From positions 1 through 55,633 of IMG/VR virus record IMGVR_UViG_3300024239_000352: a stretch of 55,633 nucleotides of DNA, one strand, 5' to 3'. Shown piece after piece: positions 7,944-54,865 of this stretch. The translations under genes and the position numbers were made by a program. The notes beneath the pieces are model-generated. The model was not told where the DNA came from, did not search any database, and saw only the letters and a program-made list of their open reading frames with translations. The DNA comes from a virus. How positions within the stretch are numbered: position 1 is the stretch's first letter; each line of letters begins with the position of its first letter.

Positions 7944-8216
7944 ATGAAACTTACACACGCAGCGCTTCGAAGATTGATCAAAGAAGAAATACAAAATCTT
8001 GCCGAGTCTGACGCCAACCTAGAGACCATCAAGAGTGACGTGTCGAATGTCCTGGACAACTTTGTCAAGTACAAGAGATATAGCGTCGCCAGCGTTATTT
8101 CTGCTGTTTATGCGTGGGCAAACGAGAAAAACGCTGATTTAAATACACGATCAGTAAACAAGGCACAGGACCTGACATCGCTCGCAGCCCAGCTAAGAAA
8201 ACAACACGGAATTTGA
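7944..8216 (+). CDS. Small protein with N-terminal LIxEE tag
   Basis: A 90-residue helical protein of unknown function. Its first 20 residues contain LRRLIKEEIQN, the amphipathic tag that recurs on several other proteins in this window, followed by LAES, a possible prohead-protease-like LxE site. The remainder (SVISAVYAWANEK and on) is predicted helical. The start lies 8 nt after GATAAT (7930-7935) and has no clear Shine-Dalgarno. It could be an internal virion protein, but this rests only on the tag. Confidence 0.6.
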   Translation: MKLTHAALRRLIKEEIQNLAESDANLETIKSDVSNVLDNFVKYKRYSVASVISAVYAWANEKNADLNTRSVNKAQDLTSLAAQLRKQHGI

Positions 8217-8258
8217 CTGATTGAACAATGACCCCATTTCCATGTTAAAATGGGAATT

Positions 8259-8855
8259 ATGTCATTAAGTCCCGAAGAGATCGCTGCAAATTTTGATAAG
8301 TTTCGTTCACTTTGCGAAAGGCTAGCCGATAGATCAACGGCTGCCCTCGCGCTCGTCGATCACTTTGCAGAAAGATTAGCTTTATGTCCAGCCTCGGGCC
8401 GTAAGGAATATCACCTTGCAGAACCAGGCGGTCTGGTGGACCACTCCCTTCGGGTCCTCGGCAATGCAATGAAGCTGTGCAAGGCTTTTGAGTACAATCT
8501 TCCCAAGGATTCTCTCATCATCGCTTGTCTCTTTCACGACATCGGCAAGCTCGGTGACCTAGAGCAAGAATACTACCTTCCACAGGATTCGGACTGGCAC
8601 CGCGACAAGCTCGGTGAGATGTACAAACACAACAAGGACATCAAGTACATGACCGTCCCACACCGCGGTGTCTGGTTGTGCCAACACTTTGGTCTGAAGC
8701 TCACCCAGGATGAATGGCTTGCCATCATGCTCAACGACGGTTGGGTCCTTCAGGAAAACAAGGCATATTGTCTAAAGGAAGGAACCCTCGTGAGCGTTGT
8801 TCAGACGGCTGATTATCTTGCAACAAAGCACGAGAAGGAAACGCTTGGTGGCTAA
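8259..8855 (+). CDS. HD-domain phosphohydrolase
   Basis: A protein of 198 residues with the HD superfamily metal-binding pattern: His62 in GGLVDHSLRV, His93-Asp94 in CLFHDIGKLGD, and a late Asp in QTADYLATK. Members are metal-dependent nucleotide or nucleic-acid phosphohydrolases; the substrate is unknown. The frame also has an ATG at 8250, but that codon sits in a perfect inverted repeat (CCCATTT/AAATGGG, 8232-8254). ATG 8259 lies 7 nt after TAAAAT (8246-8251), matching other operon-head genes, so I prefer 8259. It lies between the PolA-type polymerase and SSB genes, consistent with nucleotide-pool control. Confidence 0.8.
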   Translation: MSLSPEEIAANFDKFRSLCERLADRSTAALALVDHFAERLALCPASGRKEYHLAEPGGLVDHSLRVLGNAMKLCKAFEYNLPKDSLIIACLFHDIGKLGDLEQEYYLPQDSDWHRDKLGEMYKHNKDIKYMTVPHRGVWLCQHFGLKLTQDEWLAIMLNDGWVLQENKAYCLKEGTLVSVVQTADYLATKHEKETLGG

Positions 8856-8866
8856 TATTTAAAGTC

Positions 8867-9106
8867 ATGTCGGCCGACGATATTCTTCGCAAGTACATCA
8901 GGAACCTTATTGAAGAGGTTAGAGATACCCCACGTGTGGGTGATCAACTAAAAAATGCCGATGGTTCACCTGAAAGCGGAGATGACAACGATGATGAGAA
9001 TGAGAAAGAAGTAGACGAGATGAATGTCACAGCCCACATCGTCGGCCCGATGCTTCCTTTTGCAATGAAGACACCAGGGAAGAAAAAGAAACCCGGCTGG
9101 AGATAA
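8867..9106 (+). CDS. Small acidic protein with N-terminal tag
   Basis: A protein of 79 residues. The N-terminus (ILRKYIRNLIEEVRDT) is the amphipathic tag shared with other proteins here. The middle (about 30-50) is a strongly acidic Asp/Glu/Asn run. The C-terminus contains HIVGPMLPF and a basic KKKKPGW end. There is no enzymatic motif. The start follows TAATAT (8853-8858) by 8 nt without a good Shine-Dalgarno. The architecture (tag, acidic linker, short hydrophobic terminal motif, basic tail) suggests an internal virion or scaffold-like peptide; this is inference. Confidence 0.55.
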   Translation: MSADDILRKYIRNLIEEVRDTPRVGDQLKNADGSPESGDDNDDENEKEVDEMNVTAHIVGPMLPFAMKTPGKKKKPGWR

Positions 9107-9415
9107 ATGAAAAATTTAATCCTTCCTTATACCGCCCTCTTTACGACGGGTGTAATCGGCGCTTTTGTCACAAAGAAGGTCCAAGGTGGATCACTTCCGA
9201 TATGGGCTCCCATCGGTCCATCAATCGTCAGCGGTCTTCTTTGGGGTTACATCTCTCGTCGTTCCCAAAACCTCAGCCTCATGTCGGTCCTCGTCGACGT
9301 CATCTACACGGCGGCGTTCGTCACAGGTTTCATCATCCTCGGTGATCGCCTTACACCTCTTCAGGTTGCCGGCTTCATCGTCTCACTCATCGGCGTCGCA
9401 ATGATGGCGGCATAA
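9107..9415 (+). CDS. Four-helix membrane protein, EamA/SMR-like
   Basis: A protein of 102 residues with four hydrophobic segments at about 4-21, 31-47, 57-77 and 80-101. The end (LGDRLTPLQVAGFIVSLIGV) resembles the last helices of EamA and small multidrug resistance-like transporters. The Glu in the first helix that SMR pumps need is absent, so drug efflux is unlikely. The ATG directly follows the upstream stop (TAAATG) and a GGAG Shine-Dalgarno lies 7 nt before it. Its role in the phage is unknown; a holin-like function is possible but unsupported. Confidence 0.6.
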   Translation: MKNLILPYTALFTTGVIGAFVTKKVQGGSLPIWAPIGPSIVSGLLWGYISRRSQNLSLMSVLVDVIYTAAFVTGFIILGDRLTPLQVAGFIVSLIGVAMMAA

Positions 9416-9438
9416 TCCTCACCTTCCTAATATTTAAC

Positions 9439-9522
9439 ATGTCGACCCTTCGACGCGGAATAGGATTAGGAATGAAAAACAACAACGTTTGTTCTGTCGG
9501 TCCCGACACCGTGCAAAGTTGA
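9439..9522 (+). CDS. Possible 27-codon leader ORF
   Basis: ATG at 9439 follows TAATAT (9428-9433) by 5 nt, the same layout seen before several real genes here. It opens a frame of 27 codons ending in TGA at 9520-9522. The peptide is basic and has no recognisable motif. It lies in the 250-nt gap before the SSB gene. It may be chance, or a leader peptide. Confidence 0.2.
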   Translation: MSTLRRGIGLGMKNNNVCSVGPDTVQS

Positions 9523-9665
9523 CGCAAGGAATATTATAACAATACAACCAACCGACACTGATGTAGGTTGACAACAGACTTGGATGTCTAACTGATGTGG
9601 CGAACCACATGCGGTGGTTCCACCTCGATTAGAGGTTCACAGCGGAAACGGAAAAGGAAAATATC
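9523..9665 (+). promoter_or_regulatory. Structured leader of the SSB gene, candidate autoregulatory site
   Basis: The leader contains a perfect hairpin GAACCAC/GTGGTTC (9602-9608 with 9614-9620) and a second one ACCTC/GAGGT (9622-9626 with 9632-9636). TGTGG/CCACA with a CGAA loop is an alternative pairing with the first. An unstructured A/G-rich tract with the Shine-Dalgarno AAGGAAA follows up to the ATG. A perfect -35 hexamer TTGACA is at 9568-9573, but no convincing -10 follows it. T4 gp32 represses its own translation by binding a leader pseudoknot plus an A-rich stretch; a similar role here is inferred. Confidence 0.4.
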
Positions 9666-10514: not shown

Positions 10515-10526
10515 TAGTCCTTGAAG

Positions 10527-10560
10527 AAGCGGCCGGAGGTAAATCTTCCGGCCGCTTTGT
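10527..10560 (+). terminator. Rho-independent terminator after SSB gene
   Basis: A perfect 11-bp GC-rich stem, AAGCGGCCGGA (10527-10537) with TCCGGCCGCTT (10547-10557), has a 9-nt loop and ends in a short T run. It sits 12 nt after the SSB stop. The -35 element of the next promoter overlaps its 3' edge. Confidence 0.85.
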
Positions 10561-10591
10561 ACTATTTCCAATCAAGATAGGATAATTGAGT
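10557..10591 (+). promoter_or_regulatory. Promoter of recA-like gene, leaderless type
   Basis: TTGTAC (10557-10562), an 18-nt spacer and GATAAT (10581-10586) are followed after 5 nt by the ATG at 10592. There is no Shine-Dalgarno between the -10 box and the ATG. The same TTGTAC hexamer precedes the exonuclease gene at 13049. Confidence 0.5.
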
Positions 10592-12218: not shown

Positions 12219-13019
12219 TTAGCGACCTGTGGGAGCTTCATCGGGTGCGGTAGGGGATGAAGCTCCTGTTTTCTTCGCATCCACTGCTGGGGTCTTTGGA
12301 TAATGTGTTGCTGCAACATCCTCAGTGTATCCATAATCAAGAATTACGGCCCGCCCATCAGGCGTCTTGCCCCAGTGGTCTAAAACGGTTAGATCTGCTG
12401 ACATTAGTTTATTCGAACCTTTTTCGGCCTCTCCGGGCGCAGAATGTTTCGCGGTCGACGATGAATTTCCTAACTTTAGTTTATTCGAACCTCTTTCGGC
12501 CATATCGTAAACTTTCTTTGTGAATTCATGGGCCCCGCTGGGTAAGGACATCTTATTTTTTCTGGCGAATGTTGACACTGACGCTGTCAAATCTTGAACG
12601 AATTCCTGCCAATCGACTCCGGTTAGGCTTTTGAATTCATTCGTCGATGTAATAGGTTTTACTAGGTCTGAGATGACCCATTTTCCTTCCTTGTCAGCGT
12701 CATAAATTCTGGCCGCCACGTCGGCCGACGTGGGTTCTGCGTATACCTCTACTTCAGCTTTGTTTTGAGCGATGCCTTTTTCATTCCTGGCAATCTTTAA
12801 GACTTTCTTTGATGACAAAACGAATGCGATTCTTGAGCTACCTTGACCTAATGGCTCTAGATAATTCATCGCATAAGCTTGCATGATTGATTCATTTGGC
12901 AGAGATCTAAAATCTTTTAGATCGAAACGCCGACCGCCAAAACGGGTTTTTATCTTTCTCTTTGAACGAATTTTTTCTACTATCAATTGAAGATATTCCT
13001 GTAACAGCTCGTGATTCAT
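12219..13019 (-). CDS. Protein-kinase-like fold protein with N-terminal tag
   Basis: A protein of 266 residues on the minus strand. Residues about 1-18 (LLQEYLQLIVEKIRS) are a variant of the recurrent amphipathic tag. Kinase-like features follow: a Gly loop LGQGSSRIAF, VLKIA with a candidate ATP-binding Lys, a hinge-like GKWVISDLVKP, and near the end DGRAVILDYG, which could be the DFG position. The usual HRD motif is not clear, so catalysis is uncertain. A 24-codon duplication repeats GSNKL. The gene converges on dut, and its 3' end holds the dut terminator. The start has GAGGAAT 11 nt upstream and TAATTA 5 nt upstream. Confidence 0.55.
   Translation of the reverse strand: MNHELLQEYLQLIVEKIRSKRKIKTRFGGRRFDLKDFRSLPNESIMQAYAMNYLEPLGQGSSRIAFVLSSKKVLKIARNEKGIAQNKAEVEVYAEPTSADVAARIYDADKEGKWVISDLVKPITSTNEFKSLTGVDWQEFVQDLTASVSTFARKNKMSLPSGAHEFTKKVYDMAERGSNKLKLGNSSSTAKHSAPGEAEKGSNKLMSADLTVLDHWGKTPDGRAVILDYGYTEDVAATHYPKTPAVDAKKTGASSPTAPDEAPTGR
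12232..12272 (+). terminator. Rho-independent terminator of recA-dut unit, inside the opposing gene
   Basis: GGAGCTTCATC (12232-12242) and GATGAAGCTCC (12256-12266) form a perfect 11-bp stem with a 13-nt loop, followed by TGTTTTCTT. It would stop + strand transcription just after dut. The same bases encode the C-terminal Ala/Pro/Ser/Thr-rich tail of the reverse-strand kinase-like gene. Confidence 0.7.
12404..12501. repeat. 26-nt imperfect direct repeat inside the kinase-like gene
   Basis: Copies at 12404-12429 and 12476-12501 differ at one base (TTAGTTTATTCGAACCT then T or C, TTTCGGCC). They are 72 nt apart, a whole number of codons, and encode the repeated peptide (A/M)E(R/K)GSNKL in the minus-strand protein, so the frame is kept. 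Confidence 0.85.
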
Positions 13020-18130: not shown

Positions 18131-18424
18131 ATGAAAGTCAACGACAAACAAATAAGAAAAGTAATAAAAGAGGAGCTTGCTAGAGGCATACCTGATTATG
18201 CCTTTGTGAGACCCGTTGAGAATGCTGTTGATTTATTAGTGAACGACTTGATTAAATGTCTCGTTGCTCACATCAATCAAACTTCACGAGATCCTCAGGC
18301 AAGAAACGCAAGATATGCTGCCGCCAACAGAATAGCGGCAGCGTTGCGTCGTGACCGTGAATTTACGAAAGTAATAGAAGATAAGTTAAAAGAGAAGCTT
18401 CTTATATTTTTTGATGAAGTATAA
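18131..18424 (+). CDS. Small helical protein with N-terminal tag
   Basis: A protein of 97 residues. The N-terminus MKVNDKQIRKVIKEELARG is one of the clearest copies of the recurrent tag, which is why I take ATG 18131 over the in-frame GTG at 18092 that lies inside nrdJ. The rest is helical with Arg/Ala-rich (RNARYAAANRIAAALRR) and Lys/Glu segments. Function is unknown. Confidence 0.6.
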   Translation: MKVNDKQIRKVIKEELARGIPDYAFVRPVENAVDLLVNDLIKCLVAHINQTSRDPQARNARYAAANRIAAALRRDREFTKVIEDKLKEKLLIFFDEV

Positions 18425-21608: not shown

Positions 21609-21995
21609 ATGTACGGTGAAAACCTTGATCTTGAAGATGAACTTTTAGAATCCATAGAAGACTTTTTGCTGGAGGAGTTCGAAGACGATGCGTTGCTCCT
21701 TCGTGAGTTTATAGAAGAAGTTTTATGCGAAAAGAAGAAGGGCGGCTCTAACCCAACGAAGGCCTTAAAAAATAAGGCAGAAAAAACTGGAGCTCCGATG
21801 GGAGCTCTGCGTGCCATCTATAACAAAGGGCTTGCGGCCTGGAGAACAGGCCACAGACCAGGAACTTCTCCTCACCAGTGGGCGATGGGACGCGTCAATA
21901 GCGTTTTGGCAGGCGGCCCAGCGAGAAAGGTCGATGACGCCCAGTGGAAACAGATTCAAAAACATCGTGGAAAAAAACGAAAAAAGAACAAATAA
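21609..21995 (+). CDS. DUF5824-like protein with acidic helical N-terminus
   Basis: A protein of 128 residues. The first about 45 residues are acidic amphipathic helix (LLESIEDFLLEEF, LLREFIEEVL), related in character to the N-terminal tags elsewhere. The rest has KTGAPMGALRAIYNKGLAAWRTGHRPGTSPHQW and ARVNSVLA-like segments that I recall as DUF5824, a domain of unknown function in phages. The C-terminus is strongly basic. ATG 21609 is preferred over upstream in-frame starts, which overlap the previous gene. Confidence 0.6.
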   Translation: MYGENLDLEDELLESIEDFLLEEFEDDALLLREFIEEVLCEKKKGGSNPTKALKNKAEKTGAPMGALRAIYNKGLAAWRTGHRPGTSPHQWAMGRVNSVLAGGPARKVDDAQWKQIQKHRGKKRKKNK

Positions 21996-27608: not shown

Positions 27609-28103
27609 ATGAAAATTACATTGAATCAATTAAAACAACTAATAGCTGAAGAGGTTTCTTTAGCTAAAACTAACGACAAAGATCCACAGCGTTTTCTTCA
27701 TGGCTTTGATTCCGGTAATCCCATGGATGATGAAGGCTCCATGCTAAAATCAAGAATGTCTAACATAAAGGACATGGCGTCGACAATCTGCGATCTTCTT
27801 GAAAACGGTGATCAAGTGCCAGCGTGGTGTCAAGACCTCGTCGCAGGTGCCCACCGCGATCTTGAACACGTCAAGGATTATATGCTAGGCGATCAAAAAA
27901 TGCGTGACAAAAAAGCCAAGCAGCAGATGCAGCCCAATCCAATGCCGACAACTGTTCCAATGGTTGCCAGTGAGGCTTACATGCGTAAGTTTAGCAGGCT
28001 TACTGAGAGCTTCGCAAGAATAACAGAAAAAGAAATGCAGGCTTGGAAAAATGGCGATTGGGGCTATGTCCAAGGCGATGATTCTGAACCAGAAGACCTG
28101 TAG
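27609..28103 (+). CDS. Tagged protein with conserved DQxPxWxQ-type helical domain
   Basis: A protein of 164 residues. The N-terminus MKITLNQLKQLIAEEVSLA is the recurrent tag with an LIAE site. Residues about 35-95 (SMLKSRMSNIKDMASTI, GDQVPAWCQDLVAGAHRDLEHVKDYML) match a helical domain that I recall from hypothetical proteins of T4-like marine phages (LPEWVQ type). A Met/Gln/Pro-rich linker and acidic C-terminus follow. The tag suggests packaging into the head; the function is unknown. Confidence 0.6.
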   Translation: MKITLNQLKQLIAEEVSLAKTNDKDPQRFLHGFDSGNPMDDEGSMLKSRMSNIKDMASTICDLLENGDQVPAWCQDLVAGAHRDLEHVKDYMLGDQKMRDKKAKQQMQPNPMPTTVPMVASEAYMRKFSRLTESFARITEKEMQAWKNGDWGYVQGDDSEPEDL

Positions 28104-30009: not shown

Positions 30010-31092
30010 ATGAACAGGGCAGTTTGTTTTGACGATGTTCTTTTGGTCCCGCAGTATTCAGAAATTGAATCACGCTCAAGCGTTGATCTGTCAGTTCCTG
30101 GATTTGATACGTCATTTATGAACCTTGTTGAAGGAAAGCCTCATCTTACGTGTCCAATTGTCGGATCACCAATGGACACGGTGATAGGTCCAGTTGCAGC
30201 TGCCGTCCTTGCGGATGTGGGAGGATTCGGTGTCTTGCATCGATATTGCTCGATCGAAGAAACACGCCAGGCGTATCTTGAAACGACATCGATGGGCAAG
30301 ACATCATCAAACAACGTTATGGTGGCGATTGGTGCAACAGGCGATTATCTTGAACGCGCCGCTGCTTTATATTCTGTTGGGTGTCGCGCTTTTTGTGTTG
30401 ATGTTGCACACGGCCATCACGTAAATGTAAAGAATGCGCTTTCCGCTCTTCGATCAAGATTTGGCAAATCTGTTCATATCATGACAGGCAACGTCGCGAC
30501 CCTCGAGGCATTCAACGCATTGGCCGACTGGGGTTCTGATTCGATTCGTGTTGGGGTAGGCGGTGGTTCAATGTGCACGACTCGTGTCAGGACAGGTCAC
30601 GGGATTCCAACGTTGCAATCAGTAATCGATTGCGCAAAGTCGGATCGTGACGTCTACATAATCGCCGATGGAGGCATTCGAAACTCTGGTGACGCAGTGA
30701 AAGCCCTCGCAGCCGGTGCCGACATGGTGATGCTAGGCTCAATCCTTGCAGGCCATGATGAATCCCCAGGTGAGATTGTTGATAAGCGCGGTGTTCCGCA
30801 CAGTCCTAACTGGAAGAATGACATTCCGCTTTTCAAAAAATTTCGAGGAATGGCTTCACGCGAAGCGCAGCTTGAATGGCGTGGAAAGGTTTCCGTTGTT
30901 GAAGGCGATTCAACGCTTGTACCATATAAGGGCTCAATGAGACAAACCCTGATCGAATTGATGGATGGAGTCCGATCAGGGCTATCTTATTCAGGCGCCA
31001 GGACCATTAGAGAACTTCGGGCCAAGGCAAAATTTATTGGCGTTTCTTCAAGCGGTGTTAGAGAAAATGGATCACACGGTAAGAATTCTTGA
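30010..31092 (+). CDS. IMP dehydrogenase / GMP reductase family enzyme
   Basis: A protein of 360 residues. The N-terminus [11 protein letters not shown], catalytic-loop GGGSMCTTR with Cys189, [26 protein letters not shown] and the flap segment [10 protein letters not shown] are family hallmarks. CBS domains are absent, as in GMP reductase and in some short IMPDHs, so direction (IMP to XMP, or GMP to IMP) cannot be decided. GxGS is Gly-Gly here instead of Gly-Pro. It would alter the purine pool during infection. Its stop is directly abutted by the convergent Cys-rich gene. Confidence 0.88.
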
Positions 31093-31710
31093 TTACTTTT
31101 CAGATGGCCACTTACCTATAGCTTTATGCATCATCCATGCTGCCGCTGCGGCAGGTTCTTTTGCCCAACCTGAAACTTTTTGCATCTTTTGAGCAAAAGT
31201 TTTTGTTCCTTTAAGTATTTTTTGTGCCGCTTTTTTTGAAGGACCTTTTCTTTTCTTTGATTCATTCATTCCGCACTCACACATGGATTCATTCATTCCG
31301 CACTCATCACAGACCTTATCAGCCTCTTTTAAGTACTCTTCTGATGCTTCTTCAGAAGCCATAGTATACCAATTTGAATCCGAGGTATCGCTGCATCCAC
31401 ACGATCCTGCTGCAGGCATTTGGTTGCAGTGCGGACATTCTTCACCACATCCACATGAGCCGTCTACAACCATCATTCCGCAATCATCGCAACAATCGGA
31501 GTCATCTTCTCCGACGCTAAGCACGCCTTCTTCATCTTCATAACCTTCATTAGATTCATCACATCCACACATGCCTTCAACGACAGGCATTTCACAGTCA
31601 GGACATGTTTCTTCATCACGAACGCCTACGGCTCCAACGGAGGTTATGCCTGGCACTTCGCCGATAGGTGTACCAAATTTTTCATTTAAAAGGCTGCTGT
31701 AATCTTTCAT
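31093..31710 (-). CDS. Cysteine-rich repeat protein (multiple zinc-ribbon knuckles)
   Basis: A protein of 205 residues on the minus strand. Three units of the form CPxC...VVxGxCGC (about 36-50, 74-88, 92-106) and further CDEC/CEC pairs give many Cys pairs spaced as zinc knuckles, separated by acidic linkers. The C-terminal about 60 residues are basic and helical (KKAAQKILKGTKTFAQKMQKV). The N-terminus has PGITSVGAVGV. No enzyme motif. It may bind metal and nucleic acid; function unknown. Confidence 0.6.
   Translation of the reverse strand: MKDYSSLLNEKFGTPIGEVPGITSVGAVGVRDEETCPDCEMPVVEGMCGCDESNEGYEDEEGVLSVGEDDSDCCDDCGMMVVDGSCGCGEECPHCNQMPAAGSCGCSDTSDSNWYTMASEEASEEYLKEADKVCDECGMNESMCECGMNESKKRKGPSKKAAQKILKGTKTFAQKMQKVSGWAKEPAAAAAWMMHKAIGKWPSEK
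31259..31306. repeat. 21-nt perfect direct repeat in the Cys-rich gene
   Basis: GATTCATTCATTCCGCACTC and one more base occur at 31259-31279 and 31286-31306, period 27 nt, so nine codons are duplicated (ECGMNES units) in the minus-strand protein. Confidence 0.9.
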
Positions 31711-33016: not shown

Positions 33017-33847
33017 ATGGATCTAAACGTTGTCCACAGGGGCACAGCCCTTGACTTGCTTTGTTCGATTCCTAATGAATCAATCGATCTTATCTACACC
33101 GATCCTCCGTTCGGCACAGGAAACACACAGACGATGGACCGGAAGAAGGCCGGGAAAACCGTCTCTAAAATTGAGTATAGCGATAAGTACGAGAATTACC
33201 TCGATTTTCTTGAGCCTCACCTGATTGAAATGCACAGGGTTCTGAAACCTACTGGTACCATGTACCTCCACATGGACTGGAGGTGGGTACACTATGCTAA
33301 GGTGATGTGTGATGGAATCTTTGGAATGGAAAACTTCCTCAACGAGGTTGTTTGGTCCTACAACTTTGGTGGACGAGGAAAGGATCGTTGGCCTCAGAAG
33401 CATGACACCATCCTTGTCTACACCAAGGAGATGGGCAAGCACACTTTCAATTGGAAAGATATAGACAGGATTCCATATGCCGCACCAGAGCTACAGTATG
33501 TTGGTAGATCGAGGGAAGAGGCAGAGAAAAGAATAGCTGAAGGTCAGGTTCCAACAGACGTGTGGAGCATGAGCATCGTAGGAACAGCGTCCAAAGAGAG
33601 AATAGGATACCCCAACCAGAAACCAATTAAATTAATGAAGCGTGCAATTGTTGCATCGTCAAATGAAGGAGACATTGTTCTTGATCCTTTTGGAGGGTCG
33701 GGTTCAACAGCGGCCGCGGCTATGGAAGCAAATAGAAAATTCATTACAGGTGATTCAAGCCCAGACGCAATCCAAACAATGCGCAACAGGTTTACAGGGC
33801 TTGACGTAAAATTTATAGAAAGTAAATTAGGAGAAAACAATGGCTAA
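33017..33847 (+). CDS. DNA methyltransferase, beta class (DPPF)
   Basis: A protein of 276 residues. Catalytic TDPPFG (28-33) and AdoMet-binding DPFGGSGST near 220 give the beta-class order. NQKPIKLMKRAI precedes the second motif as usual. No adjacent restriction gene. It overlaps the actin-like gene by 8 nt. The second of two solitary methyltransferases in the window; the two differ in catalytic motif (DPPF here, DPPY at 22447) and so may mark different sites. Confidence 0.9.
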   Translation: MDLNVVHRGTALDLLCSIPNESIDLIYTDPPFGTGNTQTMDRKKAGKTVSKIEYSDKYENYLDFLEPHLIEMHRVLKPTGTMYLHMDWRWVHYAKVMCDGIFGMENFLNEVVWSYNFGGRGKDRWPQKHDTILVYTKEMGKHTFNWKDIDRIPYAAPELQYVGRSREEAEKRIAEGQVPTDVWSMSIVGTASKERIGYPNQKPIKLMKRAIVASSNEGDIVLDPFGGSGSTAAAAMEANRKFITGDSSPDAIQTMRNRFTGLDVKFIESKLGENNG

Positions 33848-34844
33848 AGGTTTAGACGTCGGTACATCATTCATCGTTCTTGCATCTGAGGGTTCAAAGG
33901 GCAAGGTGGTCTACAAGGACTTCCGGGACGCATTCTACGTCCTCAAGCCAACAACACCGATCGCCGCCAAGATGATCGAAAAGGGTTTGGCTGGCAAGAC
34001 ATTTGTCAAGGACACTGATGGTTCATTCATCCTCCTCGGCTCCGACGCAATCGAAAAGGCCGTGGAGAGAAACGACTCGGCGAAGCGTCCAATGTACCGT
34101 GGTGTCGTATCATCCAAGGAAAAGGATGCCCGTCGCATTTTGACATACATCCTCAAGGAGGTCGCAGCCTCACCCTCCGAGCCCGGTGAAAAGCTAGTCT
34201 TCTGCGTCCCTGCTCAACCAATCGATCAAGAAGACGACGATTTCGACGTTGGTTACCATGAGGACGTCATCGTCAAGCTCCTCGCCGAGGTCGGTTACGA
34301 TGCTCGTGCCATCAACGAGGCCGAGGCGCTTTGCTACTCTGAACTCGACAAGGATGACTACACAGGTGTCTGCCTCTCATGGGGCGCAGGTATGGTCAAC
34401 GTCTGCGTCATGCTCAACGGTGAACCTGTGGTCAAGTTCTCCACCACAAAGTCCGGTGATTGGGTCGATCGTATGTCCGCAGTCGCGACAGGTGAGACAG
34501 ATTCAATTGTCCAGGCCGAAAAAGAGTCAGGAGAGTTCACCGTCGGTCAACCCAACGATAACCAGGTCCTCGCCGCTGTGGCAGCCTATTATGAACGTCT
34601 TATCGACTACACTACGAAGCAACTTGCAGCGGCGATGGACGGCCACAAGTCACTTCCAAAATTCAAGGGTGATCTTCCAGTCGTGGTTGCAGGTGGTACA
34701 TCCAAGGCCAAGGGATTCGTCGACATGTTTGCTTCAAAGTTGAAGGACAATGGCTTCCCACTTCCTGTCAAAGAGGTACGCCACGCAGCAGATCCCCTAC
34801 ATGCCGTTGCTCGTGGATGTTTAATCGCAGCCCAGGTGATGTAA
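33840..34844 (+). CDS. Actin/ParM-like ATPase
   Basis: A protein of 334 residues with actin-superfamily signatures: phosphate-1 GLDVGTSFIVLA (Asp6), phosphate-2 LSWGAGMVNVCVM after NEAEALCYSE, and adenosine motif VVAGGTSKAKGF. ParM, MreB and phage actins such as AlpC share these. It could build filaments that position or segregate phage DNA; an Hsp70-like role is less likely at this length. Strong GGAG Shine-Dalgarno. Very C-rich third codon positions suggest high expression. Confidence 0.8.
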   Translation: MAKGLDVGTSFIVLASEGSKGKVVYKDFRDAFYVLKPTTPIAAKMIEKGLAGKTFVKDTDGSFILLGSDAIEKAVERNDSAKRPMYRGVVSSKEKDARRILTYILKEVAASPSEPGEKLVFCVPAQPIDQEDDDFDVGYHEDVIVKLLAEVGYDARAINEAEALCYSELDKDDYTGVCLSWGAGMVNVCVMLNGEPVVKFSTTKSGDWVDRMSAVATGETDSIVQAEKESGEFTVGQPNDNQVLAAVAAYYERLIDYTTKQLAAAMDGHKSLPKFKGDLPVVVAGGTSKAKGFVDMFASKLKDNGFPLPVKEVRHAADPLHAVARGCLIAAQVM

Positions 34845-47908: not shown

Positions 47909-48193
47909 ATGAAAACCATCAAAGATCAAGAGCTCATCAACATGATGCGCGAAGAGTGGACTAGAAAGGTAAAACTTCTTTCCGAATTTACCAATTTGTT
48001 ATTGCAGACGAAGGTTGATGATAAGCTCGTCAATCCTATAGACGATGAGCTTAATGTTGTCAACAAGAAAAGCAAGGTTAAGTACAAGGTAGTTTCAGTA
48101 GGCACCAACTCTGTGGAGCTAGCACCTCCTGAAGGTGGTGAAGTTTTCACGGTGAATGCAGAAGATTTGGAGGATGATTATGGCCTTAAGTGA
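47909..48193 (+). CDS. Small protein, helical N-terminus and beta C-terminus
   Basis: A protein of 94 residues. A charged helix (ELINMMREEWTRKVKLLSEF) is followed by strands that look like a small SH3/Tudor-like barrel (KVKYKVVSVG, SVELAPP, EVFTVNAEDL). No family recognised. It overlaps the SOD gene by 14 nt and carries its Shine-Dalgarno (TTGGAGG). Confidence 0.55.
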   Translation: MKTIKDQELINMMREEWTRKVKLLSEFTNLLLQTKVDDKLVNPIDDELNVVNKKSKVKYKVVSVGTNSVELAPPEGGEVFTVNAEDLEDDYGLK

Positions 48194-48896
48194 CAAAGAG
48201 ATTCTTGATGGGATGCTAAAAGGCATTGTAAAAGATGCCGTCAATAGTTCTGTAAAAAATGCGCAGCTACCCACGCTTGATGAAGCCTATCGTCATGAAC
48301 CAAAACCATTCAAGCAAGTCTCAGAATTAATTTCACAGAAAACAAAAAACTCTCATACCGAATTATACAAGGGATATATCGAATCCTTTAATAAGACGTC
48401 TGCAGAGTTGGATACTGTTGAAAGAGTGGACGTCAACTCCAGGCATTCACAATTTAGATCATTAAAGCTAGATGAGGTATTCAATCTCAATGCAATTTGG
48501 CTGCATGAATTGTATTTTGCCAACTGCTTTGACCCGCATAGCGAAGTAACGATGGATTCGATGTCTTTTCTTAGAATAGAAAGAGATTTTGGATCATTTG
48601 AAGATTGGCAACGTGATTTCATGGCCTGCGCACAGTCTTGTCAAAACGGATGGGCTGTCATGGGTTATCATGCTTTCTTGAAGAAGTATATCAACGTGAT
48701 GATTGACGGACACACCGGCAACATTCCGTTAGGATTTCATCCTATCATTGTCGTTGACATGTGGGAGCATGCATACTTCAGGGATTATCTAACTGACAAG
48801 AAGAGTTATCTTATTTCGCAGATGCGTGAGTTTAATTGGTCGACGATAGAAGATCGCCTAAAGAAGGCAGAGTCTATGGCTGGGGTTCTCAAATGA
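48180..48896 (+). CDS. Iron/manganese superoxide dismutase
   Basis: A protein of 238 residues. All four metal ligands are visible: His59 (KNSHTELYKGY), His109 (NAIWLHELYF), Asp193 and His197 (DMWEHAYF), together with FGSFEDWQRDF and GWAVMGY. The N-terminal about 45 residues and some loops are extra compared with bacterial enzymes. It may detoxify superoxide or be a virion component, as it is overlapped by a tagged protein gene and lies at the start of a putative structural/lysis operon. Start set by TTGGAGG. Confidence 0.85.
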   Translation: MALSDKEILDGMLKGIVKDAVNSSVKNAQLPTLDEAYRHEPKPFKQVSELISQKTKNSHTELYKGYIESFNKTSAELDTVERVDVNSRHSQFRSLKLDEVFNLNAIWLHELYFANCFDPHSEVTMDSMSFLRIERDFGSFEDWQRDFMACAQSCQNGWAVMGYHAFLKKYINVMIDGHTGNIPLGFHPIIVVDMWEHAYFRDYLTDKKSYLISQMREFNWSTIEDRLKKAESMAGVLK

Positions 48897-49468
48897 CAAA
48901 GAAAATTAAACTCAATGAGCTTAAACGTTTAATAGCCTCTGAGGCAAGAAAGATAATATCAGAAGCTAAAAAATCAGAAGAAACGGGTGAGGATTCAGTC
49001 GATGCTCAGATTGACCAATATTTTGCCAATTATGAGTTAGAAGGCAAGAATTCAAAAAACGAGGGCATGGATTTTAGACGTTTTATGCGGCGTTTTTTGA
49101 ATGAGGCTGAAGAAGAGCCTGAAGAAGAGGACAAAGAAGAACCGAAAGAAGAAGAGTCTAAAGAAGAAGAACCTGAGAAGGTTGAGAAAAAGAAGTTGAC
49201 ATCAGACGATATTGATGTTGATTCGTTCGTCGATAGTGTCGTGAGACTAGTGAACAATTACGACGCTCTGCTTGAGGTAAGAAACACTATTTTACGTCGT
49301 GCTGTCAACTTTTTATTAAAGGGTTATGAACCTACCGTTGCAGATTCATTTGAAGAAAGCCTGCTTGATCGCCACGGAATGGAAATAGGAAAAAGCAAGC
49401 AAGAAAAACAGGACGAGGACTTTGTAGCACCGCCAGCTGACAGGGCAGGTGCATCACCAGGCGGATGA
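48893..49468 (+). CDS. Tagged acidic protein, possible internal head or scaffold protein
   Basis: A protein of 191 residues. N-terminal tag IKLNELKRLIASEARKIISEA is followed by an acidic Glu/Lys run (about 77-102, EEEPEEED type) after FMRRFLNEAEEE. A helical domain follows at about 110-165 and the tail ends ASPGG. LNE-A and ISE-A resemble T4 prohead protease sites (Leu/Ile-x-Glu before a small residue). ATGA overlap with the SOD gene. Function unknown; an internal head role is inferred. Confidence 0.6.
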   Translation: MTKKIKLNELKRLIASEARKIISEAKKSEETGEDSVDAQIDQYFANYELEGKNSKNEGMDFRRFMRRFLNEAEEEPEEEDKEEPKEEESKEEEPEKVEKKKLTSDDIDVDSFVDSVVRLVNNYDALLEVRNTILRRAVNFLLKGYEPTVADSFEESLLDRHGMEIGKSKQEKQDEDFVAPPADRAGASPGG

Positions 49469-50987: not shown

Positions 50988-51266
50988 ATGTCTGAAGAAA
51001 GCAAAGAACCTTCCATTGAATCCATTGAAAAAGTAAAGCCTTCTTGGTTCTGGATTAAAAATAGTAAAGGCGAAGCTTCTGTTTCTGTCACATTTTTGAC
51101 TATCGCTTTTCTTGCAACGACGGCATCATACGTTACGTCGATGTTTGAGAAACTTGGGCCTTTCGTCCCTAGGCAATTCGACGCAGGCGCCTGCTCTGCC
51201 TATTTTATTCCTCTTTTGACCTTATACTTCGGTCGCAGATGGACTGAAGCTAAGAAGGGAACCTGA
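50988..51266 (+). CDS. Holin-like small membrane protein
   Basis: A protein of 92 residues with two hydrophobic helices at about 31-48 (VSVTFLTIAFLATTASYV) and 66-81 (AGACSAYFIPLLTLYF), a polar N-terminus, and a basic end FGRRWTEAKKG. Size, helices and neighbours (spanin-like protein) fit a holin. No endolysin is next to it; the endolysin is at 20576. Confidence 0.5.
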   Translation: MSEESKEPSIESIEKVKPSWFWIKNSKGEASVSVTFLTIAFLATTASYVTSMFEKLGPFVPRQFDAGACSAYFIPLLTLYFGRRWTEAKKGT

Positions 51267-51267
51267 A

Positions 51268-52299
51268 GTGCAAAACGGATCAAATAAAAGATCTGACCTA
51301 CGTATTTTGGTCAAAAGATTGCTGGAGGACAAATCTTTGGGGCAGGAATTGGCCAACATCGTAAAGGTCAACCCTGTCGTCGATCCATCGGCAGCCCTAA
51401 CCGACCCAAGTAATCCGGATTTCAAACCCGCCACCAAACCTGAGCTTTTGGCCTCATTATCGGCCATCGTCTCTGGAATCGATGACGAAAAAATACCTGA
51501 TGTGTATGACGCAATTAAACATTCAATGACCGTTGATATAGACGAAAGTGATGAGGACGTTAAGATGAGCAACAAAAAGGTTGAAGAGTCTTTAAGACAG
51601 CAAGTCAGAAAGATCATTCGTGAGTCAAATGTGAAAAGTGAAGAAATGAGGCTTGAAGAAACCGTTAGAAGCCAGGTTAGAAAAGCAATTAAGGAAATGT
51701 TTCTTTCTGAGACAGCGCCAACGACACCGCTGCAGAAGAAGCCCCGAAAAAGACTTCCTTCAGCTGCTGAACAAGAGGCAGCTGCTGAAAAGTGGCGTGC
51801 CACGGCCGAGCAGGATGCAGCCGCCCAGGCAGCATACTTAAGTGAAAAACAACCGACGATGGGTCGTCCTGGTCAAAGTGGATTACCTGTGCCTGACGAA
51901 AAGTACTTTAAATTGTCTCCTGCGGCGCGGGCTGCCCTTGACAGTTTGTTCGCCGACCCAGTCAAAATGAGCAAGAAGAATTTAACCGTGGAAGATGTCG
52001 AAGGCACGGGTTTGTTGGAGCTCGCCCGCGAGTTTGGTTTTGCCAACCCAAATGGCGTCCTTCAATGGATCAACAGGATCTTGCCAAAAATGCGTAGACG
52101 CATTGAAAACCTTGAGACGGTTGAACTCATCAAGCTAGAGACCATGAACAAATACATCGCTGGCCTCATTACAGCGAGGAAGATTTCTCCCGAGCAAGCC
52201 GCTTCGTGGCGAAATAACCCAGAGATAATCGAGGTCCTCGAGGACAATAAAGATTTTAGAATCATGTTCGACAAGGCGCTGACGAAGGCCGGCATGTGA
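51268..52299 (+). CDS. Probable virion protein with repeated tag segments
   Basis: A protein of 343 residues starting at GTG 51268 with GAAGGGA upstream. LRILVKRLLEDK at the N-terminus and two internal copies, SLRQQVRKIIRESN and TVRSQVRKAIKEMFLSE (about 110-145), match the recurrent tag. An Ala/Glu-rich helix is followed by a C-terminal helical domain (about 205-343). No catalytic motif. The internal tags make a multi-segment precursor cut by a head protease conceivable. Confidence 0.5.
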   Translation: MQNGSNKRSDLRILVKRLLEDKSLGQELANIVKVNPVVDPSAALTDPSNPDFKPATKPELLASLSAIVSGIDDEKIPDVYDAIKHSMTVDIDESDEDVKMSNKKVEESLRQQVRKIIRESNVKSEEMRLEETVRSQVRKAIKEMFLSETAPTTPLQKKPRKRLPSAAEQEAAAEKWRATAEQDAAAQAAYLSEKQPTMGRPGQSGLPVPDEKYFKLSPAARAALDSLFADPVKMSKKNLTVEDVEGTGLLELAREFGFANPNGVLQWINRILPKMRRRIENLETVELIKLETMNKYIAGLITARKISPEQAASWRNNPEIIEVLEDNKDFRIMFDKALTKAGM

Positions 52300-53057
52300 T
52301 GGAATCAGGCAGGTCGATAGTCGCGGCTGTTCAGTACAAGCCTGAGCTGCTCGATGTTCACAAAAACATCGCTGCGGCTCAGCAGTACGCTTTTGAAGCG
52401 GCCGGCAAAGGTGCCAAGGTTGTTGTCCTTCCTGAATTGTGTCTTAGCGGTTATGCGATCAATTCCAAAGCCGAGGCTGCGTCTGTTTCTCAGGAAAGAA
52501 ATGGATATCAGACCGAGGCATTCATTCCAATTGCAAAGAAGTTTGATTGTAAAATCGTTTTTGGCTATGTTGAGCTTCATGAAGGCAATTTTTATAACTC
52601 AGCAGCCGTTGTAGGCCCACGAGGCCTCGAGGCCAACACACAGAAACACAACCTATGGGGTCCTGATGCCCTGTGGGCTACACCATCTGAAGCGTTGAGC
52701 CCTATAGTTCCGACCTCGGCCGGACGATTGGGTGTGCTTATCTGTCGCGACGCTGTAAACAATTACAGGGAAACCTATAAATTTTACAAGAATGAGGCCA
52801 GGTTCTACAAGAAAGGCTCGGTAGACACCATCGCACTTTTGACAAACTGGGGTTCTGATTACGGTTATCCCGACAGCGGATGGATAGAGCTAGCTGAAGA
52901 GACCGGCGCTAACATCATTGTTTCAAACAGGATTGGAAAAGAAAGGGATCTAAAATTCAAAGGAGGATCGTGTGTCATAGATAGAACTCGAAAAGTCTGG
53001 ACACATGGTTCCTCTTTTAAGGAAGCTGCCGTTGTGGGAGGAGTTGTGCTGCTGTGA
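52299..53057 (+). CDS. Carbon-nitrogen hydrolase (nitrilase superfamily)
   Basis: A protein of 252 residues. The catalytic triad is Glu46 (LPELCLSGY), Lys116 (QKHNLWGPD) and Cys149 (VLICRDAV). VFGYVE and FYNSAAVVGP also fit. Family members are amidases, carbamoylputrescine hydrolases or glutaminase parts of NAD synthetases; the substrate cannot be read. TGATG overlap with the upstream virion gene and GTGA overlap with the next. An unusual enzyme inside a structural-looking operon. Confidence 0.88.
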   Translation: MESGRSIVAAVQYKPELLDVHKNIAAAQQYAFEAAGKGAKVVVLPELCLSGYAINSKAEAASVSQERNGYQTEAFIPIAKKFDCKIVFGYVELHEGNFYNSAAVVGPRGLEANTQKHNLWGPDALWATPSEALSPIVPTSAGRLGVLICRDAVNNYRETYKFYKNEARFYKKGSVDTIALLTNWGSDYGYPDSGWIELAEETGANIIVSNRIGKERDLKFKGGSCVIDRTRKVWTHGSSFKEAAVVGGVVLL

Positions 53058-53437
53058 AGAAGCTAAACCAGCTTCATGAAGAGTTCATCGACAAGGCCCG
53101 CCGTCCAATGGCTTTTGGCAAGCTTCCAATAATTCCTGTCGAAGGAGACGTTGCGATCATTCCCGTTGAGAAGTGGGTCACAACGAGAGATCCCATGTCG
53201 CTAAAAAAGACCTTCAAGTTCATGAAGGTGGAGCAAAGAAACTTCTTCGTCAAAAAGCTTTTTCAGTATGAGCTAGAAACCCAACACAACGCAACACTCA
53301 TCGTCGATGAAGATCAGGTTGTTGTCAAGCTTGTCACCAAAGACATAAATCAGATAACAGAGCTTGACAAAGAATATGCAAAATTTGCTGATGTCCTTTA
53401 CAAAGACGTAGTATATAATTCTCAGAATGCTACCTGA
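53054..53437 (+). CDS. Pterin-4a-carbinolamine dehydratase-like protein
   Basis: A protein of 127 residues starting at GTG 53054. From about 57 it follows the dehydratase fold: LKKTFKFMKVEQRNFFVKKLFQYE, TQHNATLIVDE, VVVKLVT, NQITELDKEYAKFADVLY. The usual His-His-Pro is His-Asn-Ala, so activity is doubtful. The N-terminus (LHEEFIDKARRP) is extra. Possible reuse as a structural protein, or a role in pterin recycling. Confidence 0.6.
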   Translation: MKKLNQLHEEFIDKARRPMAFGKLPIIPVEGDVAIIPVEKWVTTRDPMSLKKTFKFMKVEQRNFFVKKLFQYELETQHNATLIVDEDQVVVKLVTKDINQITELDKEYAKFADVLYKDVVYNSQNAT

Positions 53438-53825
53438 ATTTGATGCTCCTCCAAAGGAGCTTATGAGCACAGACCTTAAAGACGTTATCCCTGACGAAGA
53501 AGCGCTAAAAGCATACCAAGAGTCTTTTATTTCCATCATGTTGATGACGAACAGCACGTCTCAAGCTTTGATGGGAAGTCTTCTTGGAATTGAGATCTCG
53601 AATGCAACGAAGCTTGACGTCAAGATTCCTCTTGACGAAGCTTTTGCTTTTCTATCTCATGTTATATCAGCATCACAACAACAGTTTATCAATAGCATAG
53701 TTTTAAATTTTGGAGATGAAATTACAAAGGTTTCCGGACCTTTTTTGATGTCGGGCATGAAGATTGTTGAGTTAGATGCAGTCAATAAAACATGTGTGCT
53801 TGCCATGGACCTAATTAAGCAATAA
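53427..53825 (+). CDS. Protein of unknown function in the structural-like operon
   Basis: A protein of 132 residues, overlapping the dehydratase-like gene by 11 nt. An acidic N-terminus (LKDVIPDEEALKAYQ) is followed by hydrophobic helices (FAFLSHVISASQQQF) and a beta C-terminus (MSGMKIVELDAV, TCVLAMDLI). No family recognised. A tagged protein gene follows at 12 nt. Confidence 0.5.
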   Translation: MLPEFDAPPKELMSTDLKDVIPDEEALKAYQESFISIMLMTNSTSQALMGSLLGIEISNATKLDVKIPLDEAFAFLSHVISASQQQFINSIVLNFGDEITKVSGPFLMSGMKIVELDAVNKTCVLAMDLIKQ

Positions 53826-53837
53826 CCGAGGACAGCG

Positions 53838-54347
53838 ATGAAGAAGACAGCTAAAACAATAGATTCGTATCTGAACAACATCATTCAAGAGACTGTCAGG
53901 TCGACGCTTCGAAAGCGTCTCTTACATGAACAGGATGATGCACCCGCTATAGACCCTGCGAAGCCAGGTGAAGATGAGGAGGAAAAGCTAAAAAAGGGCG
54001 AGATAACCTCTGATGACATCATCGAAAAGCTGAATGCGATTAGGGCAGGTAAGTCTTTTAAAGATCAACAGATCTCTTCTTCATTAGAATCATACGTTAA
54101 TGAAATGAGCAAGGCTGAAAAGACAGCTCTTTTTGCCTTCTTGAAAGGAATTTCACAGATAGTCACAGGTGAAATTGCCCCTGCTCAGGCAATGGATCCG
54201 TCAGAGGACGTCGCCGGCATAGAGATGAAGAAAGTTTCAGGGGCAGAAAAGATCGTGATCAAGCCTACGATGAAAAAGCCTGGTGAGACGAAGGCTTCTA
54301 AAGAAGACACGTCAGGTCCTGTTCCAATTAAGCCTAAGTCTAAGTGA
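53838..54347 (+). CDS. Tagged acidic protein
   Basis: A protein of 169 residues. N-terminus IDSYLNNIIQETVRSTLRKR, then LLHEQDD: the recurrent tag followed by a possible LxE cleavage site. An acidic linker (PGEDEEEKLKKGE), a helical region (about 55-110, MSKAEKTALFAFLKGIS) and a Lys/Pro-rich end. No catalytic motif. Internal virion protein is a guess from the tag. Confidence 0.55.
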   Translation: MKKTAKTIDSYLNNIIQETVRSTLRKRLLHEQDDAPAIDPAKPGEDEEEKLKKGEITSDDIIEKLNAIRAGKSFKDQQISSSLESYVNEMSKAEKTALFAFLKGISQIVTGEIAPAQAMDPSEDVAGIEMKKVSGAEKIVIKPTMKKPGETKASKEDTSGPVPIKPKSK

Positions 54348-54381
54348 TGTAAAGTTACATAAATCGATGTAGGATGACGTC

Positions 54382-54582
54382 ATGCAGATCGAAAACCCAA
54401 TCAAAATGAACGTTGACCTTCCCAAGGGAGGCACGCTTGAGCTTGAGCTGACCGACAAGTTTTTGCAGGTCGTAAGAGATCAATTCATGTTGCAAACGAT
54501 CTCTGAGGTCAAAGAAGAGCACATACGTATGTATATTTGGGGCGCGTTCAAAAACGCCCTTGATAAAGCTGAATTAGGTTGA
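54382..54582 (+). CDS. Small protein of unknown function
   Basis: A protein of 66 residues. MNVDLPKGGTLELELTDKFLQVV is beta-like, then IRMYIWGAFKNALDKAEL a helix. TAGGAT (54370-54375) lies 6 nt before the ATG, without a Shine-Dalgarno. It lies 4 nt before the next gene. Confidence 0.5.
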   Translation: MQIENPIKMNVDLPKGGTLELELTDKFLQVVRDQFMLQTISEVKEEHIRMYIWGAFKNALDKAELG

Positions 54583-54586
54583 AGCC

Positions 54587-54865
54587 ATGTCACAAAAATC
54601 TCTTCTTGAATACGTTCAACTTTTCGTTGAACAGAAACTACGAGAAACTCAGTTAGCTGATGGCACGACAGTTGAATGGGGGTCTGACAAGCACTTGACA
54701 GAGCTCGAGCGACAGATCGCAGAAATTCAACACAAGAGACAAAAGTCTTCACGCGGTTCCTCAGCACGGGCTGACTACAAACGTGTTGAAACAAGACTGC
54801 GAGCTGAACTAAAATCGGCCAAGCGACACGCTGAGAGAAGGCTTCAAGAAAAAGAGGAAAAATGA
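54587..54865 (+). CDS. Tagged coiled-coil protein
   Basis: A protein of 92 residues. LLEYVQLFVEQKLRE (5-19) is closely like LLQEYLQLIVEKIRS of the kinase-like protein at 12219. The rest is a basic coiled coil (ELERQIAEIQHKRQK, ETRLRAELKSAKRHAE). Overlaps the next gene by 4 nt. Confidence 0.55.
   Translation: MSQKSLLEYVQLFVEQKLRETQLADGTTVEWGSDKHLTELERQIAEIQHKRQKSSRGSSARADYKRVETRLRAELKSAKRHAERRLQEKEEK

What the first reader, a model, noticed from the sequence alone, without database searches (positions are those of the whole stretch)
7944..54631. A recurrent N-terminal amphipathic tag on about ten unrelated small proteins
Short helices of the type LxxLIxEE occur at or near the N-terminus of proteins at 7944 (LRRLIKEEI), 8867 (YIRNLIEEV), 18131 (IRKVIKEEL), 27609 (LKQLIAEEV), 48893 (LKRLIASEA), 53838 (LNNIIQETV), 51268 (N-terminal plus two internal copies), and as an EYxQLxVE variant at 12219 (minus) and 54587. 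The bodies behind them are unrelated: kinase-like, acidic, coiled coil. Several are followed by L/I-x-E before a small residue. T4 internal head proteins carry a short N-terminal capsid-targeting peptide cut by the prohead protease after such a site. A shared packaging or targeting code would make these proteins head cargo delivered to the host.
Basis: partly seen in the sequence, partly recalled or inferred. Interest (0 to 1): 0.78.

Follow-up and report, generated by a model that had tools for sequence, protein, structure and literature searches.

The report
Shared N-terminal head-targeting tag, uncultured phages
Many unrelated small proteins of this uncultured phage and its relatives begin with the same kind of short helix, built like the address label that makes phage T4 load proteins into its head, so they may be a large set of proteins carried inside the virus and injected into bacteria.

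Summary
The tag is real. All nine named proteins carry the stated helix at or near the N-terminus; all nine have [LI]xE by residue 31, against 18 of the other 62 called proteins. Only three of the nine fit that strict form; six are looser variants. Bodies are unrelated, and at one locus the tag stays while the body is exchanged.
Best reading: a T4-type capsid-targeting sequence (CTS) with a prohead-protease site. In T4 IPIII (MKTYQEFIAE|A) residues 4 and 7 matter for targeting, 8 and 10 for cleavage (PMC9026906, passages); LxxLIxE has the same spacing. Relatives encode a T4-type protease and capsid protein. One kinase-like family carries LIxEE, LLxEYxxLxxE or T4-like EFIxE leaders on one body.
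Not shown: presence in virions, cleavage, delivery. Against: the T4-spacing pattern also fits T4 DNA ligase, some tagged bodies look cytosolic, phages with the protease but no tag exist, and no head genes were found in the window. New variant of a known kind.

The parts
7944..8216 (+). 90-aa protein, tag residues 1-21 MKLTHAALRRLIKEEIQNLAE|S (about 7944-8006)
   Evidence: same locus in G021 keeps the tag (11 of first 16 residues identical) but the next 28 aligned residues share 3, and the protein is 129 aa; neighbours orthologous (HD protein 68%, PolA 43% identity)
8867..9106 (+). 79-aa acidic protein, tag MSADDILRKYIRNLIEE
   Evidence: orthologues: MSVTDILRQYIRELIEEV in L118, and in frame upstream of my called start in G025, MSDVLRQYIQEMILEV
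12219..13019 (-). 266-aa kinase-like protein, tag MNHELLQEYLQLIVE (13019 down to about 12975)
   Evidence: phrog_4301 E 3.8e-20; AF2 with 26 sequences mean pLDDT 81.5, residues 3-21 one helix followed by a loop to 33; PDB look: kinase-fold entries and SAICAR synthases, best Z 8.2
18131..18424 (+). 97-aa protein, tag MKVNDKQIRKVIKEEL
   Evidence: orthologue in G025 56958 MKLTKTQLKQLIKEEL
27609..28103 (+). 164-aa protein, tag MKITLNQLKQLIAEEV
   Evidence: orthologue in G025 44349 MKITLTQLKKLIKEEI
48893..49468 (+). 191-aa acidic protein, tag MTKKIKLNELKRLIASEARKIISE|AKK (looser variant)
   Evidence: orthologue G025 28131 MKKQITKSQLKTLIKEV
51268..52299 (+). 343-aa protein, N-terminal DLRILVKRLLE|D plus two internal tag-like stretches at residues 113 and 137 (about 51604-51711)
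   Evidence: orthologue G025 24754 STLRQIVKVLLED; G023 6965 also has an internal second copy
53838..54347 (+). 169-aa protein, tag IDSYLNNIIQETVRSTLRKRLLHE|QDD
   Evidence: orthologue G025 22712 LDDYLKKIINESL
54587..54865 (+). 92-aa protein, variant tag MSQKSLLEYVQLFVEQKLRE|T
   Evidence: orthologue G025 22184 STLVEFVKLLVEKKLREF
31093..31710 (-).
   Evidence: no Pfam match
21609..21995 (+).
   Evidence: PF19141 E 2.4e-15
48180..48896 (+). Fe/Mn superoxide dismutase with an N-terminal extension holding a weak tag-like helix (ILDGMLKGIVKDAV); doubtful member
   Evidence: PF02777 E 5.7e-19; loose-pattern match only, Asp in place of Glu

Best explanation
The tag is a T4-type capsid-targeting sequence with a built-in prohead-protease site. 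An amphipathic helix of about 10-20 residues, pattern [L/I/Y]xx[L/F][I/L]xE, at the N-terminus of otherwise unrelated proteins binds the scaffold core (gp22 type) while the prohead assembles; the gp21-type protease then cuts after an [LI]xE in or just behind the tag, freeing the mature body inside the head for ejection with the DNA. Shown here: the tag, its N-terminal enrichment, its modularity, its spacing identity with the mapped T4 CTS, and protease and MCP genes in relatives. Inferred: core binding, cleavage, presence in the virion, delivery.
For: (1) N-terminal enrichment, strict motif, observed vs shuffled: window 4 vs 0.18, G012 13 vs 0.89, G004 10 vs 1.54, LR756508 23 vs 2.68, G025 10 vs 0.59, G027 10 vs 0.36. 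[LI]xx[LIV]IxEE: 41 of 2224 proteins of 11 records (G025 8, G027 8, G012 8, LR756508 7, G004 6, G002 2, G021 1, immuto 1, G006, G016 and G023 0) vs 0.97 from the internal rate; 1 of 1596 in seven comparison records. (2) T4 CTS spacing in the first 20 aa: window 8 vs 1.3, G025 19 vs 4.2, G004 51 vs 10.1, LR756508 51 vs 11.7; T4 mapping and L/I-X-E specificity from passages of PMC9026906. (3) Unrelated bodies: 198 tag-positive proteins of 11 records in 160 body families by blastp linkage (limits in the full report); locus swap. (4) Same kinase-like body with exchangeable leaders, by eye: LLREYVSLMIE, EIKKLINEEV, KINEILTE|S, KSIEFIDE|A, ANEFIFE|K; [LI]xE in 26 of 30 distinct N-termini vs 12.3 shuffled (related sequences, not independent). 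(5) PF03420 protease in G012, G002, G023, G025, G027 and LR756508, PF07068 MCP in 14 of 19 records; MCP N-termini show LISE|T, LRE|A, LTE|G where T4 gp23 has LTE|A, by eye. (6) Tagged genes in the terminase/portal-to-MCP cluster: 24 of 118 vs 128 of 2178 elsewhere in ten records, P 3e-7 (limits set by hand; of seven records tested singly only G027 and LR756508 are significant). Rare in conserved core families: 4 of 228 vs 124 of 1495, P 6e-5.
Against: No virion proteomics. No PF07068 MCP match in the window or G001, both fragments. [LI]xE is short and common (378 of 1700 untagged N-terminal stretches) and partly built into the motif. In T4 itself the spacing pattern gives 11 hits vs 5.5 shuffled (12 of 300 shuffles reach 11), DNA ligase among them. 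Phages with the PF03420 protease but no excess of the strict motif exist: RM378, P-SSM2, Mel-JY01, T4. Some tagged bodies would be expected in the cytosol or at lysis: phage lysozyme (G012), poly(A)-polymerase head domain (G004). In the kinase-like family L233, L236 and L242 (31-36 residues before the core) and RM378 L258 show no such leader by eye. Weak or negative relatives: G006, G016 and immuto on the strict form, G020 0 of 20, G022 0 of 102.
Confidence: 0.72

Rival explanations
1. The tag marks prohead core components (gp67/gp68-like helper scaffolds) that are chopped up and leave the head, not cargo that reaches the host.
For: In G025, G027, G012, G002 and LR756508 small tagged genes lie among the terminase, portal, protease, scaffold and MCP genes, the region of T4 67/68; several bodies are small and acidic (48893, 8867).
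Against: Tags also sit on enzyme-like bodies (exonuclease PF00929, NT5C-like, kinase-like), and most tagged genes lie outside the head cluster (128 of 152 in ten records).
Confidence: 0.12
2. The tag is an amphipathic helix for something else (membrane or factory localisation, dimerisation, translation start), and the T4 resemblance is coincidental.
For: Amphipathic Lys/Glu-rich helices are common; hydrophobic moment 0.65 (139 tagged) vs 0.52 (1803 untagged N-termini). RM378 and P-SSM2 have the protease without the tag.
Against: The Glu two residues after Ile/Leu, the occurrence with T4-type head genes, and exchange with EFIxE-type leaders on one body.
Confidence: 0.1
3. The tagged proteins are paralogues that share an N-terminal domain by descent and diverged elsewhere.
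For: Some are paralogues, e.g. the 21-member family of LR756508; short bodies give blastp little power.
Against: 160 body families by blastp; known unrelated domains behind the tag.
Confidence: 0.04
4. Chance and composition bias.
Confidence: 0.02

Closest known systems
T4 capsid-targeting sequence (CTS) of IPII/IPIII; propeptides of Alt and gp24
   Same: N-terminal, 10-20 residues, hydrophobics at positions 4 and 7, Ile/Leu (Phe in Alt) at 8, Glu at 10 (sequences, mapping), unrelated mature bodies; PF03420 protease and PF07068 capsid protein in relatives
   Different: Consensus L..LI.EE (or LL.EY..L..E, or LIKKILKE) instead of MKTYQEFIAEA; on tens of proteins in the larger genomes; packaging and cleavage not demonstrated
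P1 DarB N-terminal capsid-targeting signal
   Same: N-terminal 30 residues direct cargo into a phage head (PMC9024508 abstract and passages)
   Different: BLAST shows no consensus among N-termini of P1 Dar proteins (same passages); here there is one
phiKZ / SPN3US head-protein propeptides
   Same: Cut after Glu by a gp21-like protease, head proteins (PMC5694885, PMC9026906 passages)
   Different: Several SPN3US propeptides over 100 residues, S/A-X-E in phiKZ; phiKZ shows only a small excess of the motif here (strict 3 of 353 vs 0.89, 21 of 300 shuffles reach it)

Membership tests
T4-type CTS | N-terminal position | tested here: met
   41 N-terminal proteins vs about 1 expected from the internal rate in 11 relatives; window strict 4 vs 0.18 shuffled
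T4-type CTS | Hydrophobic-x-x-hydrophobic-[IL]-x-E spacing (T4 residues 4,7,8,10) | tested here: met
T4-type CTS | Unrelated mature bodies behind one leader | tested here: met
   160 body families; locus swap
T4-type CTS | Cognate gp21-type protease (PF03420), scaffold and gp23-type MCP in the same phage | tested here: inconclusive
   Protease: G012, G002, G023, G025, G027, LR756508. MCP: G002, G012 and others by PF07068; G025 and G023 by membership of one HMM family with them. Scaffold only by position and similarity. Window and G001 are fragments without a PF07068 match
T4-type CTS | Cleavage after [LI]xE by the protease | not testable with these tools
   Sites present in all nine proteins vs 18 of the other 62; cleavage needs experiment
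T4-type CTS | Sufficient to bring a foreign protein into heads; protein found in virions | not testable with these tools
   No proteomics or reporter data seen for these phages
Protein-kinase-like fold (12219 protein) | Kinase fold with Gly-rich loop, Lys, Glu and DxG motif | tested here: inconclusive
   Invariant GxGSxR, K75, E89, D228xG230 in 26 sequences; Foldseek PDB no match at E 0.001 or below; VIA best Z 8.2, rmsd 6.2, 145 aligned; no Pfam match for the window member

The most novel reading that the evidence does not exclude
A group of uncultured T4-like phages uses an exchangeable N-terminal address tag to load tens of different proteins per virion, including a kinase-like protein, an exonuclease and, in a 484-kb phage, most of a 21-member paralogue family, making the capsid a programmable injector of host-directed proteins; the tag imitates a conserved helix of the phage's own scaffold protein.
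Probability: 0.38. Interest if true: 0.87.

Novelty: new variant of a known kind. Interest (0 to 1): 0.72.

Why it matters
Which phage proteins travel in the virion and act first in the host is mostly unknown outside a few models (general knowledge). A leader readable from sequence would let one predict head cargo in uncultured genomes (2.6-5.7% of called proteins by the strict motif in the window, G004, G012, G025, G027 and LR756508), pick candidate anti-defence proteins, and gives short exchangeable tags for loading proteins into phage heads.

Tried and rejected
Sec-type signal peptide: the tags are charged helices without a hydrophobic core (read from sequence, no predictor run). A PSSM trained on G004+G012 (MRNLIKKILKEE type) scored the window poorly (2 of 71 at 8 bits vs 0.9 expected), so the tag has sub-types; I went on with regular expressions and a pooled PSSM. 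Scaffold mimicry: the pooled tag PSSM peaks at one alignment column (about residues 35-50) in 10 gp22-type scaffolds, mean 7.4 bits, 0 of 1000 column permutations reach it; but of eight tried singly only G012, G016, G023 and LR756508 (the last at another place) beat shuffles at 5%, T4 gp22 does not, and among 31 conserved families an MCP helix scores 7.9, so this is suggestive only. The LR756508 paralogue family looked like ADP-ribosyltransferases to my eye; no informative Pfam or PDB profile match supports it (the PDB hits are mostly helical bundles), so I do not claim it; PHROGs 11975 and 12810 match it, function unknown. First AF2 model of the 12219 protein was unusable (pLDDT 46.8). DNA-pattern scan of IMG/VR for MK[LIV]xxxL[KR]x[LI]IxEE: 32 loci, 28 open an ORF of at least 44 aa, about 24 of them in two body families by eye. 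A search for immuto gave 4 papers, none a proteomics study by its title (listing only). Literature for this tag: the listings and passages of PMC3012670, PMC5694885, PMC7824862, PMC9024508 and PMC9026906 showed no description of it outside T4, P1 and phiKZ-like phages; only open-access papers are held.
Full report
What was checked. The window is a 55.6-kb virus record (G000). It has no tRNA gene and no megablast match among 50,697 phage records for its central 24 kb. I called genes with my own script (71 in the window, 96% coverage) and compared it with related contigs found by protein and pattern scans: G001 (48.6 kb; the 893-aa protein of 338-3019 is 100% identical; it reaches about 13.3 kb further upstream), G002, G020, G021, G022, G023, G025 (200 kb, close relative), G027, and more distant G004, G006, G012, G016, LR756508 and Flavobacterium phage immuto. 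T4, P-SSM2, SPO1, phiKZ, RM378 and Mel-JY01 served for comparison.

The observation. All quoted peptides are present at the stated genes. Six of the nine named proteins are looser variants. Comparison: T4, P-SSM2, SPO1, RM378 and Mel-JY01 0 each, phiKZ 3 of 353 vs 0.89. G020 gave 0 of 20 and G022 0 of 102; G006, G016 and immuto are weak on this form (3, 2, 2), though G016 and immuto exceed shuffles on a wider form (8 vs 1.75, 9 vs 2.72).

Sub-types. In G004 and G012 the leader is mostly of the MRNLIKKILKE or MKKVIxLxExDLxxLVKKVIxEE kind (by eye); by a PSSM trained on these two genomes 47 of 388 and 27 of 255 proteins reach 12 bits at the N-terminus, against 1.6 and 1.1 expected from windows at internal Met (training and test overlap here). 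In the window lineage it is MKxTxxQLRRxIKEE, with a second form LLxEYxxLxxE on 12219 and 54587. In LR756508 there are MKLTERKLRxIVKEEI and MKLKDLLFE types.

Modularity. Between the PolA-like and HD-domain genes the window has a 90-aa protein (7944) and G021 a 129-aa protein; they share 11 of the first 16 residues and 3 of the next 28 aligned, while the neighbours are orthologous (43% and 68%). G025 has no called gene there. The 198 tag-positive proteins of 11 records (regex or PSSM at 9 bits; the PSSM was built from the same records; the window and G001 overlap) fall in 160 body families by blastp linkage at 1e-4, 115 with one member. Limits: proteins under 70 aa were not compared and count as single, short bodies give little power, and the same threshold marks 1-9 proteins in each of seven comparison records, so some of the 198 are false. 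The kinase-like family of 12219 shows the leader changing on one body: LLREYVSLMIEKIR in the near relatives, MKLTEFEIKKLINEEVAKVFAE|A in L235, MKINEILTE|S in L246, MKSIEFIDE|A in L251, MRANEFIFE|K in L255 (by eye, starts not proven). Of 33 of the 44 loci (the rest left out, mostly near-identical), 2 had no usable ATG and 1 repeated another; of the 30 left 26 hold [LI]xE in the first 25 residues against 12.3 shuffled and 9 the full T4 spacing against 1.4. These are related sequences, so the counts are not independent. L233, L236 and L242 have only 31-36 residues before the core and no leader; RM378 (L258) has none by eye.

Why T4. Published mapping of T4 IPIII (passages of PMC9026906): the first 10 residues were required for incorporation, targeting lies mainly at residues 4 and 7, processing at 8 and 10, and gp21 cuts after L/I-X-E. 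On MKTYQEFIAE|A (sequence checked) that is Y4..F7 I8.E10; LxxLIxE has the same spacing, and T4 gp24 (MAKINELLRE|S) fits it too. A pattern written from those positions finds 8 of 71 window proteins in the first 20 residues vs 1.3 shuffled (six of the nine named, plus 31093 and 3337), G025 19 vs 4.2, G004 51 vs 10.1, LR756508 51 vs 11.7, immuto 19 vs 4.6, but T4 only 11 vs 5.5 (12 of 300 shuffles reach it): IPII, IPIII, gp24 and gp2 are among the 11, and so are DNA ligase and a 305-aa protein that I take from memory for RNase H, so single hits are not proof. RM378 gives 7 vs 3.2, P-SSM2 9 vs 5.2, SPO1 5 vs 3.6, phiKZ 10 vs 6.4, Mel-JY01 7 vs 4.3.

The head machinery. PF07068 MCP matches 14 of 19 records (17 from the 32 pattern loci, two from the protein scan). 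PF03420 protease is found in G012, G002, G025 and G027 (2 of 4 records), and in 7 of 13 records: G023, LR756508, T4, P-SSM2, KVP40, Mel-JY01, RM378, but not in the fragments G020, G021, G022, G024, nor in SPO1 and phiKZ. So the protease alone does not predict the tag. MCP N-termini show YENQASxLIxE|T/G or LRE|A where T4 gp23 has LTE|A (by eye). In G025 the order is terminase, tagged 123897, portal, gp21, 119398 and 119069 (the second tagged by regex), gp22, MCP, with a few other genes between (names by similarity). Ten records with a cluster I could delimit by hand: 24 of 118 cluster genes tagged vs 128 of 2178 elsewhere, P 3e-7; seven of them, first run, 22 of 96 vs 113 of 1593, singly significant only in G027 (5 of 11) and LR756508 (9 of 37). 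G016 was left out because its cluster is broken up by paralogues. In 31 families conserved in at least 7 of 10 genomes 4 of 228 proteins are tagged vs 124 of 1495 others of 100 aa or more; two of the four are the protease itself.

Cargo. Of 24 tagged proteins from relatives chosen by eye and scanned, three pass a Pfam cut-off: RNase_T exonuclease (G002 15898, E 3.5e-10), phage lysozyme (G012 70439, E 6.6e-18) and poly(A) polymerase head domain (G004 135696, E 2.3e-35, residues 298-418). An NT5C-like phosphatase (immuto, E 4.7e-5) lies just under its cut-off, a coiled-coil family further under (G025 53385); one search gave none. Of 10 window proteins scanned (the nine and 25885) none passes a cut-off. 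Lysozyme and poly(A) polymerase do not obviously need to be injected and count against a pure cargo reading. The 12219 family is predicted as a kinase-like body (AF2 pLDDT 81.5, pTM 0.73). Foldseek against the PDB gives nothing at E 0.001 or below but its top 50 are aminoglycoside phosphotransferases and other small-molecule kinases, PRPK, protein kinases and SAICAR synthases; VIA best Z 8.2 at rmsd 6.2, at the edge of what the tool calls trustworthy; among viral models 55 match at E 0.001 or below, several named protein kinase.

Cleavage sites. All nine named proteins have [LI]xE by residue 31, against 18 of the other 62 called window proteins; for six of the nine this is part of the T4-spacing pattern itself. 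In the 18 residues downstream of the wider motif, [LIVM]xE before A, G, S, T, N, D or Q occurs in 33 of 135 vs 18.7 shuffled (0 of 1000 reach 33); 9 of 27 tallied sites with L or I lie at +7, one heptad on, which a repeated helix pattern alone could produce; untagged stretches have it in 204 of 1700.

Verdict. The code is real, N-terminal, modular, and built like the T4 CTS. That it is a CTS is the best explanation (0.72); that the proteins are delivered to the host is a further inference. I found no description of such a tag outside T4, P1 and phiKZ-type phages in the searches listed, where I saw listings, and in the passages named under Tried and rejected.

Noticed in passing
window 33840-34844 (+): An actin homologue matching the Volactin family (PF25216, E 1.2e-64), known to me from archaea (recalled), in a tailed phage.
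   Followed up: no
window 30010-31092 (+): IMP dehydrogenase (PF00478, E 5e-87) carried by a phage.
   Followed up: no
window 48180-48896 (+): Fe/Mn superoxide dismutase with an N-terminal extension that looks conserved by eye in G025 28706; a neighbour of tagged 48893.
   Followed up: partly
window 52299-53437: Carbon-nitrogen hydrolase next to a pterin-4a-carbinolamine dehydratase.
   Followed up: no
LR756508 179298-337233: 21 paralogues (plus a 55-aa fragment), 16 of the 21 tag-positive, many with MKLKDLLFE-type leaders; R33, R78, P111 invariant and G34, R51, P76, S81, G95, E235 nearly so in 19 aligned members; no informative Pfam or PDB match.
   Followed up: partly
gp22-type scaffolds of 10 relatives, residues about 35-50: A conserved helix resembling the cargo tag; second best of 31 families, so possibly not specific.
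   Followed up: partly
G016 36569-100085: 26 linked paralogues, most beginning ME[KI]ETLKxIFxFLEE or similar.
   Followed up: no
window 54862-55633 (+): An open frame running off the window end (MRAALAEGGAVGHLMHLYDN...), by eye orthologous to G025 20964.
   Followed up: no
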